The notes beneath the pieces are model-generated. The model made no database searches. It was not told where the DNA came from and saw nothing but the letters and a program-made list of their open reading frames with translations. Shown piece by piece: positions 2,838-36,927 of a stretch of 64,000 bases of DNA (position 1 is the first letter of the stretch; each line of letters opens with the position of its first letter). The translations under genes and the position numbers were made by a program. Source of the DNA: Maridesulfovibrio sp. (GTDB lineage Bacteria > Desulfobacterota > Desulfovibrionia > Desulfovibrionales > Desulfovibrionaceae); assembly GCF_963678865.1 (NCBI RefSeq), contig NZ_OY787459.1:214501-278500 (forward strand), written 5' to 3'.

Positions 2838-4024
2838 ACTTGATCTGACAGTCTGCCTTTTTGATGGGACCGAAATTGTCAGTTTAGTTTAAACTCAGAA
2901 CCTTGTCGTTCCAGAGTTCTTTTCCATCCAGCATAGTTGCCAGTGGTGTTCGACCGCAACACATTTTTCCCTGATGAGATCGTTGCGTGTTGTATTCATC
3001 AATCCAGATATCAAGATCTGTCTGCAATTCTTCCTGTGAAGTATAGATCTTACGTCTGAATGTGACCCTGTAGAATTCATCCAGAATCGTTTTGTGGAAG
3101 CGTTCGCAAATCCCGTTTGTTTGCGGGTGACGTGCTTTAGTCTTTGTGTGCTCGATGCCGCAAATGCCAAGAAACAGTTCGTAATCGTGTTTCTCAACGC
3201 ATCCGCAATACTCGGTTCCTCTGTCGGTCAGCATGCGTAAAATGCCCATTTCCTGCTCTGCGAAGAAAGGAAGGACCTTGTCGTTGAGCATATCGGCTGC
3301 AGTGATCGGCGTTTTGGTTGTGTAGAGCTTTGCGGCTGCCCACTTGGAATAGGTGTCCACAAAAGTCTGCTGATAGATCCGCCCAACGCCTTTGATTGTG
3401 CCGACATAGAAGGTGTCCTGACTACCCAGATAGCCAGGATGGGCTGTTTCGATTTCACCGCAGGCCAAATCATCATCCTTTTTCTTCTCAAGGGCCTGAA
3501 CCTGCGCCTCGGTGAGTACAACTCCTTGCTCTGCTGAAATCTTCTCCAGCGCAGTCAACCGGAGCTTGAAATTATGGAGATTGTGCCGGAGCCAAATGGA
3601 TCTAACTCCTGAAGGCGAAACAAAAACGCCCAACTTTCTTAGCTCATTACTGGTTCTTGTTTGTCCATGAGCAGGAAAGTCAGTTGCGTAAACAACAACT
3701 GCGTCTTCGATTGCCTGATCTACCCGATTCTTCAGGTTCGGTTTACGACGGGACTTATCAAAAAGTGCTTCCACACCGCCTTCTTCCTTGGCTGAATGAT
3801 ACCGGTAAAAGGTGTCCCGAGAAAAGCCCATCAGCTTGCAAGCTCTGGAAACATTACCGAGTTCTTCCGCCAGATTCAGCAGACCTATCTTGTGTTTTAT
3901 GATGTTTTGATTGAAACTGGACATGTGGTTCTCCTTGGGCACGGTGCCCTGTTTTGATGGTTCCTTAGTATTCCCATCAAAAAGGAGAACCTCTTCTGTT
4001 TCAAGAGGAAATGTCAGATCAAGT
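2838..4024. mobile_element. IS481-family insertion sequence, 1187 bp
   Basis: The element is bounded by inverted 13-base ends ACTTGATCTGACA (2838-2850, and reverse complement at 4012-4024). A second perfectly matched inner block CCTTTTTGATGGGA lies at 2856-2869 and, inverted, at 3972-3985. It holds one transposase gene on the minus strand. The inner and outer blocks are 5 bases apart on the left but 26 apart on the right, where an extra 6-bp hairpin (3990-4008) sits. No target-site duplication is evident from the flanks. Confidence 0.85.
2884..3924 (-). CDS. IS481-family DDE transposase
   Basis: 346 residues. A helix-turn-helix N-terminus (LGNVSRACKLMGFSRDTFYR) is followed by an rve-type integrase core with catalytic Asp in TFVDTYSKW, Asp in LTDRGTEYCG and Glu in GICERFHKT, and the HPQTNG motif typical of the family. 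I place the start at ATG 3924, which has AAGGAG six bases upstream, rather than the GTG at 3942. The gene looks complete, with no frameshift, and fills the element between its inverted repeats, so the copy may still be active. Confidence 0.92.
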   Translation of the reverse strand: MSSFNQNIIKHKIGLLNLAEELGNVSRACKLMGFSRDTFYRYHSAKEEGGVEALFDKSRRKPNLKNRVDQAIEDAVVVYATDFPAHGQTRTSNELRKLGVFVSPSGVRSIWLRHNLHNFKLRLTALEKISAEQGVVLTEAQVQALEKKKDDDLACGEIETAHPGYLGSQDTFYVGTIKGVGRIYQQTFVDTYSKWAAAKLYTTKTPITAADMLNDKVLPFFAEQEMGILRMLTDRGTEYCGCVEKHDYELFLGICGIEHTKTKARHPQTNGICERFHKTILDEFYRVTFRRKIYTSQEELQTDLDIWIDEYNTQRSHQGKMCCGRTPLATMLDGKELWNDKVLSLN

Positions 4025-33011: not shown

Positions 33012-33090
33012 GCAGTTAAAAAGTGTAAGTTATGTTGACAAAATGAGAATTGGCAGAGTTTTGCTAAATAGCCGATTCTGAGAAATAAAG

Positions 33091-33136
33091 AAAAGGCTGG
33101 AACGGCGTGTGTCTATCACGAGTTCCAGCCTTTTTT
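33091..33136. terminator. Bidirectional terminator between the PBP gene and the phosphonate operon
   Basis: AAAAGGCTGGAAC and GTTCCAGCCTTTT form the stem around an 18-base loop, with A and T runs on the outer sides, between two convergent transcription units. Confidence 0.85.
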
Positions 33137-33165
33137 ATTGCTTGCGGATCTACAGGGTGCAGGAG

Positions 33166-34239
33166 CTAAACGGATCCGAAAAATTGCGTAAGTATGGTCA
33201 GTAAGATTTTTTTGTCCGGATTAACCGGATTATTTTTAAGTCGTTCCAGATTGACGTATTCTACGATTCTGCCGTAGACCGATTCTGGAATTCCCAATTT
33301 ATTTATGCTGAACTCCAAGCCGCACCGCTTCATTTTTTCATACCAGAGATCACAGCATTCTTCGGCTGTTTTGCAATTCATTAATTCATATAACCTGCTG
33401 GGAACAGCTTCTTTATTGATTTTGAAAAACAGGCCTGTGAATATTGCCACGGCATGCCCATGTGGGATGTGGTATTTTGTTGTTAAATAATATGAAAAGG
33501 CGTGGGGAGCGGTTGTTTTGCTTATATTGATGGCTTTTCCTGCATAATGAGCCCCCATAGCCATACTTTCTCTGCTTTCTTGATCAGGGTTGAGGACGGC
33601 TTTTTCAAGGTAAGGAAGAATCATGGAAATAGCTTTAGAGGCGTACTCCCGGCTTTCCTTGGTCGCCCCTTTGGCCCAATAAGATTCAATAGCCTGACTG
33701 AGTGCATCAAATCCAGAACATGCTGTAAGGTATGGCGGCATTGAGGAGCTAAGTTCCGGATCGATTGCCACCCCGTCAGGAAGAAGTTTTTCGTGAGCCA
33801 GAGAGTATTTCTGTCCATCCATATAAATGACAGCAAAATGTGTGGCTTCACTGCCCGAACCTGCTGTTGTCGGGGCGCAAAAGAGAGGTAGTGTCCTACT
33901 GATTTCTACTTGCCCTCGAATGGCTTGTCTTAAGTCTTCGTCCAAAGATAATGTTTTGGCCATATCAATGACACTCCCGCCGCCAATGGCCAAGATGGCT
34001 TCAATACCGGAAGATTTAATTGTATGGTATCCTTTGCCTGTCTCTTCAAATTTTACATTGGGTGAAAAATCGGAAAAAAAGACAAGCTCGCTGCTTTGGA
34101 GTTCAGAAATAATTTTGTCTTTTAAGCCGGATTGCTTAAATGATGTTTTGCCGGTTACTACTAATATTTTCCGGTATTTTTGATTTCTTATTTCGGCCAG
34201 AAGTTGTTTCAGGCTTCCTGCACCGCTGAATGTTATCAT
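33166..34239 (-). CDS. Iron-type alcohol dehydrogenase, probable phosphonoacetaldehyde reductase (FomC/PhpC-like)
   Basis: 357 residues of the group III metal-dependent alcohol dehydrogenases. The nucleotide-binding GGGSVIDMAK near 92, PTTAGSGSEAT near 123-133, the metal-ligand region DALSQAIESYW near 180 and HGHAVAIF near 265-272 are visible. The family includes enzymes that reduce phosphonoacetaldehyde to 2-hydroxyethylphosphonate. That substrate is inferred from context: the start overlaps the stop of the phosphonopyruvate decarboxylase gene by four bases (ATGA), and PEP mutase lies upstream. On its own the sequence would also fit another short-chain aldehyde substrate. Confidence 0.85.
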   Translation of the reverse strand: MITFSGAGSLKQLLAEIRNQKYRKILVVTGKTSFKQSGLKDKIISELQSSELVFFSDFSPNVKFEETGKGYHTIKSSGIEAILAIGGGSVIDMAKTLSLDEDLRQAIRGQVEISRTLPLFCAPTTAGSGSEATHFAVIYMDGQKYSLAHEKLLPDGVAIDPELSSSMPPYLTACSGFDALSQAIESYWAKGATKESREYASKAISMILPYLEKAVLNPDQESRESMAMGAHYAGKAINISKTTAPHAFSYYLTTKYHIPHGHAVAIFTGLFFKINKEAVPSRLYELMNCKTAEECCDLWYEKMKRCGLEFSINKLGIPESVYGRIVEYVNLERLKNNPVNPDKKILLTILTQFFGSV

Positions 34240-35348
34240 CGGAAATTTTCCATAAACATTTTTTTGTTTTCCAATGGAGTACTGGTCGGCCTGCCAATGT
34301 CTTTTGATTTGGAGTTATTGGTCATAACCTCCAGGAAACAAAGATTTTCAGCTTCAGCCAGTTTCTTGTCGAGTGTTTCTTCTGACTCAACCCTCGCTGC
34401 TGTAGAGTACCCGCACGCTCTGGCTATCTCACACAGGTCAATTTCTCTGGCAACTGTCGGTTGTCCGCCGGTAGAACCGTGCTCTCCATTGTTGATTACA
34501 ATGTGGATCAGATTGTTTATACCGCTTGAACCGATTGTTGCCATTGCCCCAAGGTGCATGAGGCAGGCCCCGTCACCATCAAGGCAGATTACTTTTTTGT
34601 CTGGGGAATTGGCCGCTATTCCTAAGGCAATGGATGAAGCATGCCCCATGCCGCCTACTGTAAGAAAATCGGTCCCGTGTGAAATTTCGTTTTCTTTTCT
34701 GGTATGAAAGAGTTCTCGGGAAGCCATGCCGGTAGTGGCGACAATCACAGTATTTTCAGTTTGGGCTTTAACAATGCATTCAACTGTCTTTTGCCTGCTC
34801 AGCGGATAGGCCTTGCCTGTACTGTTCTTCTTTGCCGTGTACTCGGAGAAAGTCCCTTTTTTTATCAGCATGGCATAGGGCGAATCATGGTTTTGGAAGA
34901 AAGAAACTGCCTTGAAAAGTTCTGCTTCAATCTCTGAATTTTCGTCGATAACAGAGAAAGGTATCTCGAGATTCTGCAGCATTTCACAGGTTATTCTACC
35001 CTGAAATTTGTGCTGCGGTTCATCTTTAACACCGGGTTCGCCTCTCCAGCCGATCACAAGCAGCATGGGGATTGAGTATATTTCTTTCGCAACCAGCGAC
35101 GTAAGTGGATTAACCGCATTCCCCAACCCTGAATTCTGCATATATACTACCGGGACTCCGGCGGTGGACAGATGGTAACCGATGGCAGCACCGACGGCGG
35201 CACCTTCGTTTACGCATATAGTGTGCTTTAATTCCTCATCATCAGTTGCTGCAGTACAGAAATGCTTCAATGTGGAGTCCGGGACTCCGTAAAATGAGCT
35301 GAAACCTTTCTCTTTGCATATTTCTAGAAAAAAAAGGGGATCAATCAT
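34236..35348 (-). CDS. Phosphonopyruvate decarboxylase
   Basis: 370 residues of the ThDP-dependent decarboxylase family: FYGVPDSTLKHFC and INEGAAVGAAIGYHL-type (here CVNEGAAVGAAIGYHL) at the N-terminus hold the catalytic Glu, QNSGLGNAVNPLTSL is the family signature, and GDGACLMHLGAMATIG...NNGEHGSTGGQPT near 267-305 is the ThDP/Mg site. It makes phosphonoacetaldehyde from phosphonopyruvate, the irreversible step that pulls the PEP mutase equilibrium forward. Only one base separates it from the PEP mutase gene upstream, and the reductase overlaps downstream, so the three are translationally coupled. Confidence 0.93.
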   Translation of the reverse strand: MIDPLFFLEICKEKGFSSFYGVPDSTLKHFCTAATDDEELKHTICVNEGAAVGAAIGYHLSTAGVPVVYMQNSGLGNAVNPLTSLVAKEIYSIPMLLVIGWRGEPGVKDEPQHKFQGRITCEMLQNLEIPFSVIDENSEIEAELFKAVSFFQNHDSPYAMLIKKGTFSEYTAKKNSTGKAYPLSRQKTVECIVKAQTENTVIVATTGMASRELFHTRKENEISHGTDFLTVGGMGHASSIALGIAANSPDKKVICLDGDGACLMHLGAMATIGSSGINNLIHIVINNGEHGSTGGQPTVAREIDLCEIARACGYSTAARVESEETLDKKLAEAENLCFLEVMTNNSKSKDIGRPTSTPLENKKMFMENFR

Positions 35349-35349
35349 T

Positions 35350-36645
35350 TTATTTTGTTCCGGGTATGAGTTCGAGAATTTCTTTGATGCTCATGCAGGT
35401 GTCGTTGCACTCGAAAGATCGTTCGTTTTTAAGTATGGTCCGGGCAACATCCATCATGGCAGGGTATGCGGCACGCAACAGGTGGTTGGCATAAATAACA
35501 ATTTTTACTCCAGCATCAATTAGCTGCTGTTCGTAAACCTGATTGTAGCTGGAAGGGACAGCAATAATGGGAGCTGTATGACCAAGTTCCTGATAGCGCC
35601 GGCAGAATTCAATGATATCTTTTTCTGATTTGCTCTTGGTGTGGATCATTACGCCGTCGGCACCGGCCCCCAGATAAGCGGTGGCCCTTTCAATGGCGTC
35701 ATCTACAGGCTTGTTGAAAATAAGGCTCTCAATTCGGGCAAAAATCATAAAATCCTTACCGACCTGACTTTTCTTCCCGACCTCGATTTTATGGCAGAAA
35801 TCTTCAATGGATGCTTGATACTGTTCAACTTCTGTTCCGAACAGTGAGTTTTTTTTCAGGCCAACTTTGTCTTCAATAACAATTGCAGAAACTCCAAGCC
35901 TCTCAAGCGAACGAACGGTAAATGCCAGATGTTCCGGTTTGCCGCCAGTGTCTCCGTCGTAAATCATGGGTTTTGTGGTGACTTCGAAAATTTCATTTAT
36001 GGTTTGCAGCCGTGAAGTTGTGTCCACCGCTTCAATGTCGGGTTTGCCCTTCATTGTTGAGTCCGTCAGGCTGCTTTCCCAGATGGCGTCGAATTCTACT
36101 ACGCGTCCGTCCTTTTTTACATTTGCGTTTTCAACTATCAGGCCGCTGAGTCCGCTGTGTGCTTCAAGGGTGCGGACAATTGTTTTGTTCGCCAGAAGTC
36201 TTTTGAGCCTTTGCTGGCGTGTTACAGGTGAAACCCCGATTTCTTTGAGCATGCCGTTTAACTGGGTGGAACTGATCCCTTTCGTGTACTCGGGTTCAAT
36301 AAGTTCTCCACCCCATTGGGCGATAGTAGCGATAACTCTTTCCCTGGTCTGCTTTTGCGGTCCTGTTTTCCAGTCATCGCCGTGAACAACGTAATCAGGG
36401 CGGACTTTTTCAAGATTTTCAACGTAATCAAGAGTATGCTGCGGTATGACTTCGGTAACACCCTTGATGTTATTTATGACCATTTCCCGTTGTTCGTAGG
36501 TCATGAACGGGAGTCGTTTGTAACTTGCAATAGCCTTATCTGTCAGTAGTCCGACAACAACTTCCCCATACGATGCTGCAATATTGAGGATGTTCATGTG
36601 GCCGGGATGAATAAGGTCTGCACTCATTCCTACGTAAACTTTCAT
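35350..36645 (-). CDS. Bifunctional cytidylyltransferase-phosphoenolpyruvate mutase (Fom1-like)
   Basis: 431 residues in two domains. Residues 1-140 are a nucleotidyltransferase with HPGH at 13-16 and KGISSTQLN near 122-130, matching the HxGH and ISTT-type motifs of CTP:glycerol-3-phosphate and phosphocholine cytidylyltransferases. Residues 150-431 are PEP mutase with IYDGDTGG and the signature [11 protein letters not shown] near 253-264, which separates true mutases from lyases. PEP mutase forms the C-P bond of phosphonopyruvate. In the fosfomycin enzyme Fom1 the same fusion also makes CMP-2-hydroxyethylphosphonate, which I infer here because reductase and decarboxylase genes follow. An AAGGACC site precedes the ATG. 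No gene for a later fosfomycin step is adjacent. Confidence 0.92.
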
Positions 36646-36808
36646 GGTCGGTCCTTGGGATCGTAGTTTAATTAATGAAGAAAAAGATAAAACAGTCGTT
36701 TTGCCTGAATAAACCTGACGTTAGTTTCAGACTATACTCCTGCATCGTATAATTAATCAATCCCGGCAGGCCTTTAAAGTTGATTTCAATCCATTTGCAA
36801 ATAAAAAA

Positions 36809-36841
36809 CGGGAAGATGATTTTTGAAAACCATCTTCCCGA
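36809..36841 (-). terminator. Minus-strand terminator between pyrE and the phosphonate operon
   Basis: CGGGAAGATG (36810-36819) and CATCTTCCCG (36831-36840) form a 10-bp stem. Read on the minus strand it is followed by TTTTTTATTT, so it ends transcripts coming from pyrE and isolates the phosphonate operon. Confidence 0.8.
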
Positions 36842-36859
36842 TATGAATCCGGGTAAAAA

Positions 36860-36927
36860 CTATAAAAGTTTTTGGGATTATTAAGCCCTTTTGTAAAAGG
36901 CTTCGGCAGAGCCGCCGAAAGCGTTCT
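36860..36927 (-). repeat. Dispersed palindromic repeat, B-type core, at the pyrE 3' end
   Basis: AAAAGTTTTTGGGATTATTAA, then AGCCCTTTTGT/AAAAGGCTT and GCCGCCGAAAGCGTTCTT. It has the same layout as the copy at 13298-13372 and abuts the pyrE stop codon. Confidence 0.65.

What the first reader, a model, noticed from the sequence alone, without database searches (positions are those of the whole stretch)
33166..36645. A complete PEP-to-CMP-hydroxyethylphosphonate gene set outside a fosfomycin cluster
Seen: cytidylyltransferase-PEP mutase fusion, phosphonopyruvate decarboxylase and iron alcohol dehydrogenase, overlapping or one base apart. Known: in fosfomycin producers Fom1 (same fusion), Fom2 and FomC make 2-hydroxyethylphosphonate and Fom1 then makes its CMP ester; a methyltransferase and an epoxidase follow. 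Here those later genes are absent. Inference: the CMP ester may donate hydroxyethylphosphonate to a glycan or lipid, giving a phosphonate-decorated envelope. The transferase must lie elsewhere.
Basis: partly seen in the sequence, partly recalled or inferred. Interest (0 to 1): 0.7.

Follow-up and report, generated by a model that had tools for sequence, protein, structure and literature searches.

The report
Phosphonate donor genes for cell-surface decoration
A portable three-gene set very probably makes an activated carbon-phosphorus building block that many bacteria seem to attach to their surface sugars; the set belongs to a known kind, but in this genome the enzyme that would do the attaching was not found.

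Summary
In detail: 33166-36645 (minus strand) is a compact operon of a cytidylyltransferase-PEP mutase fusion, phosphonopyruvate decarboxylase and a metal-dependent alcohol dehydrogenase. It is a common cassette: in 71 of 74 related loci with enough downstream sequence the same three enzymes stand together, and in 3 loci decarboxylase and dehydrogenase are fused. The fusion, and CMP-phosphonate surface tailoring as its purpose, are already in print (Rice 2019). Best explanation: a donor module making CMP-2-hydroxyethylphosphonate (HEP) for surface glycans. In 64 of 89 loci a LicD-like, PF04464 (CDP-glycerol-transferase-like) or sulfotransferase-fold protein is held; 52 of the 78 class-by-locus cases are directly adjacent, 49 of them on the same strand. 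In one congener a PF04464-type gene ends 2 bases before the fusion. CDP-alcohol phosphotransferases are a rarer fourth class. None of the first three classes was found in the window's own complete genome, so its transferase is unidentified. The cassette sits between pyrE and a penicillin-binding-protein gene, which adjoin without it in 9 of 17 genomes of the genus. The most novel lead lies outside the window: the sulfotransferase-fold neighbours lack PAPS-binding signatures and may be CMP-phosphonate transferases.

The parts
35350..36645 (-). Fusion: N-terminal PF01467 cytidylyltransferase (residues 8-128) and C-terminal PEP mutase (residues 147-430)
34236..35348 (-). Phosphonopyruvate decarboxylase (Ppd), TPP enzyme
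   Evidence: TIGR03297 over cut-off; PF02775 and PF02776
33166..34239 (-). Metal-dependent (Fe-ADH family) alcohol dehydrogenase, predicted phosphonoacetaldehyde reductase; metal ligands by alignment D178, Q182, H246, H260
   Evidence: best solved relative 6jko, the sulfoacetaldehyde reductase BkTauF with the same unusual Gln ligand
36731..36760 (-). Promoter-like site TTGATT-18-TATAGT upstream of the fusion; both hexamers also stand in congener G268 with a changed spacer
   Evidence: comparison by eye. The scan found no more promoter-like sites than shuffles (5 found, mean 6.2), so conservation in one congener is the only support
36809..36840 (-). Intrinsic terminator-like stem after pyrE, separating pyrE from the cassette; a similar stem stands after pyrE at the empty site of congener G269
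   Evidence: terminator-like sites in the scan: 6 found, shuffles mean 5.0
33095..33130 (.). Inverted repeat (GGCTGGAAC ... GTTCCAGCC) between the cassette and the penicillin-binding-protein gene, possible terminator
   Evidence: read by eye; not listed by the scan

Best explanation
A donor module, probably passed between genomes. PEP mutase makes phosphonopyruvate, Ppd decarboxylates it to phosphonoacetaldehyde, and the metal-dependent alcohol dehydrogenase reduces this to 2-hydroxyethylphosphonate (HEP). The N-terminal domain of the same fusion then charges HEP with CTP to CMP-HEP. A separately encoded transferase moves HEP from CMP-HEP to a surface glycan (or a lipid), giving a phosphonate-decorated envelope. 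Shown here: gene identities, catalytic motifs, conservation of the three-gene set, its place between pyrE and a penicillin-binding-protein gene that adjoin in 9 of 17 genomes of the genus, and the habit of related cassettes of standing next to a transferase gene. Inferred: mobility, the substrate of each enzyme, CMP-HEP as end product, the acceptor, and the existence of a transferase in this genome.
For: Family scores and motifs. N-domain 67% identical over 134 residues to 5x3d. The dehydrogenase's closest solved relative by sequence is the sulfoacetaldehyde reductase BkTauF, acting on the sulfonate analogue of the aldehyde, with Zn ligands Asp-Gln-His-His (PMC6616044 passages); across 70 cassette dehydrogenases the D and both H never vary and the Gln is Gln in 48, His in 22. 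Of 74 loci with at least 3.2 kb downstream, 74 have Ppd and 71 both Ppd and the dehydrogenase within 4.5 kb on the same strand; in 3 loci (L074, L097, L103) both are in one reading frame. 64 of 89 loci hold at least one of LicD-like (31 loci), PF04464-type (34) or sulfotransferase-fold (13) domains; hits per kb fall from 57/151 in the first kb beside the cassette to 12/135, 7/122 and 7/116 in the next three; of 52 adjacent cases 49 are on the same strand. Congener G265 has a PF04464-type gene ending 2 bases before the fusion, in a locus that also has a CMP-sugar-synthase type gene and glycosyltransferases.
Against: No LicD, PF04464-type or sulfotransferase-fold family member was found in the window's own complete genome; rang in none of 17 genomes and only weakly in one (a canonical sulfotransferase), so those two empty answers have little positive control in the genus. 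CDP-alcohol phosphotransferases are 3, as in most congeners. TIGR03405 is not reached by the dehydrogenase. One related fusion (L022) stands with a class V aminotransferase and no dehydrogenase, so the fused domain is not tied to HEP alone. The transferase profiles were built partly from the same loci, and the 80 public loci are the best-scoring hits only. 25 of 89 loci, 11 of the 44 with at least 9 kb on both sides, show none of the three classes.
Confidence: 0.7

Rival explanations
1. CMP-HEP is used by a CDP-alcohol phosphotransferase to make a phosphonolipid rather than a phosphonoglycan.
For: CDP-alcohol phosphotransferase genes stand near related cassettes: directly downstream in L080 (PF01066) and L027 (motif), directly upstream in L027 (PF01066 just over cut-off), and near L032, L045, L086 and L090 (motif). 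Of the four partner classes seen, this is the only one found in the window's own genome (3 genes).
Against: The own genome has no more of these genes than 10 of 13 congeners without the cassette (3 each; the other three have 2); the 4 genomes with cassette have 3, 3, 3 and 4, so none is specific to the cassette in G000. The other three classes are much commoner beside the cassette.
Confidence: 0.15
2. The product is a small soluble phosphonate (a fosfomycin-like or other natural product) and CMP-HEP is an intermediate.
For: The fusion's N-domain is closest, among solved structures, to 5x3d, recalled as the Fom1 domain; Fom1 makes CMP-HEP in the fosfomycin pathway (passage of PMC6697681).
Against: No tailoring genes beside the cassette in this genome: the neighbours are a penicillin-binding-protein gene and pyrE. 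Among relatives, the neighbours that I ran through Pfam are largely polysaccharide, glycosyltransferase and transferase proteins.
Confidence: 0.08
3. The fused domain activates aminoethylphosphonate (AEP) or another substrate and the dehydrogenase is incidental.
For: A 59% identical fusion (G339, locus L022) stands with a class V aminotransferase and without the dehydrogenase; AEP cytidylyltransferases are known (PMC6697681), though of another family (PF12804).
Against: 71 of 74 loci have the dehydrogenase in the set; the window cassette has no aminotransferase gene.
Confidence: 0.05
4. The cassette is a passenger without a working partner in this genome (newly acquired or decaying).
For: Sporadic (12 of 348 genomes of the order have a match at E 1e-30, 4 of 17 of the genus, own genome counted), at different sites in congeners, and no partner transferase of three classes.
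Against: All three frames are intact and the fusion is 91-93% identical to those of three congeners, which suggests selection; promoter hexamers are kept in G268.
Confidence: 0.07

Closest known systems
Fom1/Fom2/FomC of fosfomycin biosynthesis (Streptomyces)
   Same: Same N-terminal cytidylyltransferase-PEP mutase fusion (PMC6697681 passage) and, from recall, decarboxylase and alcohol dehydrogenase; N-domain 67% identical over 134 residues to 5x3d
   Different: No methyltransferase or epoxidase gene beside the cassette; genome-wide absence not tested
Phosphonyl tailoring (Pnt) pathways, Rice et al. 2019, PMC6697681
   Same: Nucleotidyl activation fused to PEP mutase for surface decoration; PF01467 fusions are 23.6% of PEP mutases in that survey
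   Different: The characterised PntC enzymes are PF12804 and make CMP-AEP; here PF01467 and, judging by the dehydrogenase, HEP; no LicD-like gene found in this genome
pepM-aepY-phpC sets, 'Global and seasonal variation of marine phosphonate metabolism', PMC9381506
   Same: Same three steps to HEP; that survey names Desulfuromusa kysingii and Arenimonas donghaensis, species that also appear here (L027, L077)
   Different: The passages seen name glycosyltransferase and lipopolysaccharide choline phosphotransferase neighbours in general; partner classes per cassette were not given there
Phosphonoglycans of Glycomyces and Stackebrandtia nassauensis (Yu et al. 2014)
   Same: Precedent for phosphonates on polysaccharide (title seen in a reference list; HEP as the group is recalled); a Candidatus Stackebrandtia locus (L032) carries this cassette
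   Different: Paper not held; gene sets not compared

Membership tests
PEP mutase (TIGR02320) | Curated score cut-off and EDKx5NS motif | tested here: met
   400.1 vs 319.55 bits; [10 protein letters not shown] at residue 258
Fom1-type HEP cytidylyltransferase domain | PF01467 domain fused N-terminally, close to the Fom1 domain | tested here: met
   PF01467 50.3 vs 21 bits; 5x3d E 2.6e-58, 90 of 134 identical; that 5x3d is Fom1 is recalled
Fom1-type HEP cytidylyltransferase domain | HEP preferred as substrate with CTP | not testable with these tools
   Needs an enzyme assay
Phosphonopyruvate decarboxylase (TIGR03297) | Curated score cut-off | tested here: met
   462.9 vs 312.5 bits
Phosphonate-associated Fe-ADH (TIGR03405, Phn_Fe-ADH) | Curated score cut-off | tested here: not met
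   154.8 vs 423.7 bits; it is Fe-ADH by PF00465 and PF25137
Metal-dependent ADH acting on C2 acid aldehydes (BkTauF-like) | Asp-Gln-His-His metal site | tested here: met
   D178, Q182, H246, H260 by the alignment to 6jko; BkTauF ligands from PMC6616044
Fosfomycin cluster | Methyltransferase and epoxidase genes next to fom1-fom2-fomC | tested here: not met
   Flanking genes are a class A penicillin-binding protein and pyrE; rest of the genome not searched for them
Pnt surface-tailoring locus | Nucleotidyltransferase fused to or near ppm, with ppd | tested here: met
Pnt surface-tailoring locus | LicD-like phosphotransferase | tested here: not met
   No LicD match in the genome (PF04991; own profile). 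Glycosyltransferases in the window were looked for by reading only

The most novel reading that the evidence does not exclude
The HEP donor cassette is a plug-in module served by at least four unrelated transferase superfamilies, one of them new: a sulfotransferase-fold family that has lost both PAPS-binding signatures and uses CMP-phosphonate instead. The window's genome would use yet another, still unrecognised, transferase. For the sulfotransferase-fold family: a predicted model matches tyrosylprotein sulfotransferases (Z 16.6, rmsd 4.0, 230 residues); the serine 8 residues after the arginine of RDPRD is absent in 13 of 13 (E 5, D 2, A 4, T 1, Q 1), and the residue before the P-loop [ST]GS is W 8, Y 4, H 1, never K or R. 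Three proteins picked by their basic P-loop (L183, L124, L094) all keep the serine, L094's read by eye.
Probability: 0.3. Interest if true: 0.7.

Novelty: new member of a known kind. Interest (0 to 1): 0.4.

Why it matters
Phosphonates resist hydrolysis and feed marine phosphorus and methane cycles, yet Rice et al. 2019 state that the steps attaching them to surface glycans are unknown. The comparison turns a vague 'transferase elsewhere' into named candidate genes next to the cassette in other bacteria (LicD, PF04464, sulfotransferase-fold, CDP-alcohol), which can be expressed and tested with CMP-HEP. It also marks this organism, and congeners G268 and G269 with no candidate beside the cassette, as cases where the transferase is unrecognised.

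Tried and rejected
A LicD, PF04464-type or sulfotransferase-fold partner in the window's genome: none. An extra CDP-alcohol phosphotransferase: none beyond three. Maf flagellin glycosyltransferase domain (adjacent in L064) as a genus-specific partner: MptE-like PF01973 present in 17 of 17 genomes, so not informative. Unassigned proteins of the own genome's glycan island: a 520-aa protein (L182:12765-14327) scores 11.8 bits with the PF04464-type profile against a best of 9.9 in 2000 shuffles, but in the same background set of 295 ORFs a protein that I read as UDP-GlcNAc epimerase-like scores 16.1, so this is a weak GT-B-like lead only. A 510-aa family at L181:18767 also occurs in cassette-free G270. 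Foreign base composition: cassette 45.0% G+C against 46.8 +/- 3.0 for windows of that size, no signal; the dehydrogenase gene alone is 42.6%. In the Foldseek list rows 1-38 are sulfotransferases or (4 rows) retinol dehydratase; nucleotide kinases begin at row 39; nothing is claimed from absence.

A reading that the common 391-400 aa PF04464 gene of the genus' glycan locus is replaced by the cassette was considered: the strong form of that gene is missing in G000, G268, G269 and also in cassette-free G266, and present in G265 together with the cassette. Too few and related genomes to conclude.
Full report
What is there. The three minus-strand ORFs are at the stated places. The fusion has PF01467 at residues 8-128 and PEP mutase at 147-430, passing TIGR02320; the next passes TIGR03297 (phosphonopyruvate decarboxylase); the last is Fe-ADH but passes no equivalog, and TIGR03405 is well below its cut-off. 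Motifs EDKx5NS, HPGH and GISST are present. The N-domain is 67% identical over 134 residues to 5x3d; that this entry is the Fom1 domain is recalled, the deposited name being phosphoenolpyruvate phosphomutase. The own genome (4,354,367 bases, one contig) has one PEP_mutase-family match, this one. The neighbours are a class A penicillin-binding protein gene and pyrE.

The dehydrogenase. Its closest solved relative by sequence is 6jko. PMC6616044 (passages seen) shows that 6JKO is BkTauF, a sulfoacetaldehyde reductase with Zn held by Asp192, Gln196, His261 and His275, the Gln being unusual. The window protein has D178, Q182, H246 and H260 at these places; across 70 cassette dehydrogenases D, H and H never vary, and the Gln is Gln in 48 and His in 22. 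This fits reduction of the phosphonate analogue, phosphonoacetaldehyde, to HEP; it is an inference.

A common cassette. Of 348 genomes of the order 12 have a match at E 1e-30, of which 9 cover nearly the whole fusion at 59-100% identity and one more at 49%; two match the mutase part only. In the genus 4 of 17 have it, own genome counted. I examined these 80 plus 9 loci of the order (89; the window itself not counted). All 84 fusions that my ORF caller isolated have EDKx5NS. Of 74 loci with at least 3.2 kb downstream, 74 have Ppd and 71 both Ppd and dehydrogenase within 4.5 kb on the same strand; the exceptions are L022, L023 and L090. L022 has a class V aminotransferase between Ppd and fusion, which looks like an AEP version. 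In L074, L097 and L103 Ppd and dehydrogenase domains share one ORF of 729-750 aa.

Partner genes. Clustering of neighbours gave LicD, PF04464-type and a third group that had shown no sulfotransferase match in the first Pfam scans. The third group (13 members) matches PF13469 Sulfotransfer_3 in 9 of 13 members at the loose E of 1, best 1e-12, and a predicted model of one member (mean pLDDT 79) matches tyrosylprotein sulfotransferases at Z 16.6, rmsd 4.0 over 230 residues. With profiles built from members of these groups, 64 of 89 loci hold at least one of the three classes and 25 none (many of these are short contigs); of 44 loci with at least 9 kb on both sides 33 hold one and 11 none. Hits per kb away from the cassette: 57/151, 12/135, 7/122, 7/116, then 0-3 hits per kb bin; adjacent in 19 of 34 (PF04464-type), 10 of 13 (sulfotransferase-fold) and 23 of 31 (LicD-like) loci, 49 of these 52 on the same strand. 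The profiles were made from the same loci, so the totals are not independent evidence, but the fall with distance does not follow from that alone. CDP-alcohol phosphotransferase motifs appear near L027, L032, L045, L080, L086 and L090, those of L045 on the opposite strand; PF01066 passes its cut-off for L080:13601-14341 and, barely, for L027:9083-9922. Four of the 11 'none' loci (L027, L045, L080, L090) are among these.

The congeners. pyrE is followed directly by the penicillin-binding-protein gene in 9 of 17 genomes, by the cassette in G000 and G268, and by other ORFs, with no such gene within the 1.5 kb held, in 6. In G265 the cassette lies in a glycan locus, and a PF04464-type gene (382 aa, E 4.7e-8) ends 2 bases before the fusion start. 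In G269 it lies at another site. So the cassette moves, or has been gained more than once. In G000 and G268 it has a promoter-like site with both hexamers kept while the spacer differs; such sites are no commoner here than in shuffles.

What is missing. In the window's genome PF04464 (E 0.001), LicD (E 0.001) and profiles of the three partner classes (E 0.01) gave nothing. PF04464 gave matches in 15 of the 17 genus genomes, so that search works there. The LicD searches gave none in any of the 17, though the Pfam model rang in 2 of 14 control genomes. The sulfotransferase-fold profile rang once, weakly (E 0.006), in G256, on what Pfam calls an ordinary sulfotransferase (L124). CDP-alcohol phosphotransferases number 3. 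The genome has a glycan island near 1.95-2.0 Mb, homologous to the locus that carries the cassette in G265, with cytidylyltransferase and glycosyltransferase genes; it is a plausible source of the acceptor, nothing more.

Known or new. Rice 2019 (PMC6697681; the first two of eight parts of the text and passages seen) already has the fusion inventory, the CMP-phosphonate idea and the LicD comparison. PMC9381506 (passages) has pepM-aepY-phpC sets with lipopolysaccharide choline phosphotransferase among the neighbours, and names Desulfuromusa kysingii and Arenimonas donghaensis. PMC8931226 (passages) discusses phosphonoglycoproteins of marine microbes. The finding is therefore a new member of a known kind. 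Not found in the searches made here: a sulfotransferase-fold partner (the term sulfotransferase occurs in none of the 12 papers listed of 13) or a CDP-glycerol-type partner (one paper, on a pig pathogen's genome, with one mention of each term; only its listing was seen). The library lacks most subscription journals.

The novel lead. In canonical sulfotransferases a P-loop lysine or arginine and a serine after the RxPxD motif bind PAPS (recalled; the serine position is also seen in the alignments). In the cassette-associated family the residue before [ST]GS is W 8, Y 4, H 1 of 13, and the serine is missing in 13 of 13, replaced by Glu or Asp in 7. Three proteins picked by a basic P-loop, L183 and L124 and L094 (sequence read; my pattern had missed its second motif), keep the serine; because they were picked by the P-loop, only the serine counts as a control. 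Loss of the 3'-phosphate site is what a donor without 3'-phosphate, such as CMP-HEP, would allow. This is a hypothesis resting on sequence, a predicted model and gene position.

Noticed in passing
L057:13428-14381, L019:8235-9245, L020:6647-7630, L021:7377-8411, L083:8834-9877 and 8 more (alignment A2): Sulfotransferase-fold family beside phosphonate cassettes without PAPS-binding signatures; in L019 and L021 it is the C-terminal part of proteins of 870-975 aa.
   Followed up: partly
L074:11304-13493, L097:11260-13512, L103:11305-13506: Phosphonopyruvate decarboxylase and dehydrogenase in one reading frame, in two Gastranaerophilales MAGs and an unnamed bacterium.
   Followed up: partly
L022:6668-10757: Fusion with Ppd and a class V aminotransferase but no dehydrogenase: probably an AEP version of the cassette in the same bacterial family as the window.
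   Followed up: no
window 33012-36926 and the same site in congeners: The interval after pyrE is a variable site: penicillin-binding-protein gene directly next in 9 of 17 genomes, phosphonate cassette in 2, other ORFs in 6.
   Followed up: partly
L064:6338-9868: In Alteromonas lipotrueae a Maf-type glycosyltransferase stands directly upstream of the cassette, hinting at phosphonate on flagellin glycans.
   Followed up: no
L025:5633-8650, L026:5427-8474, L067:13507-16398: Family beside the cassette and a PF04464-type gene; the L025 member joins a YidC-like membrane domain (60KD_IMP) to a sulfatase-fold domain.
   Followed up: no
L018:6383-9175: 930-aa protein joining a sulfatase-fold domain and a GT2 domain directly upstream of the cassette in a genome of the same family.
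   Followed up: no
window 2884-3942 and neighbouring ORFs up to about 8700: An ORF with helix-turn-helix and integrase core domains (transposase-like) lies among several low-GC ORFs (35-39%) at the left end of the window: a likely mobile region.
   Followed up: partly
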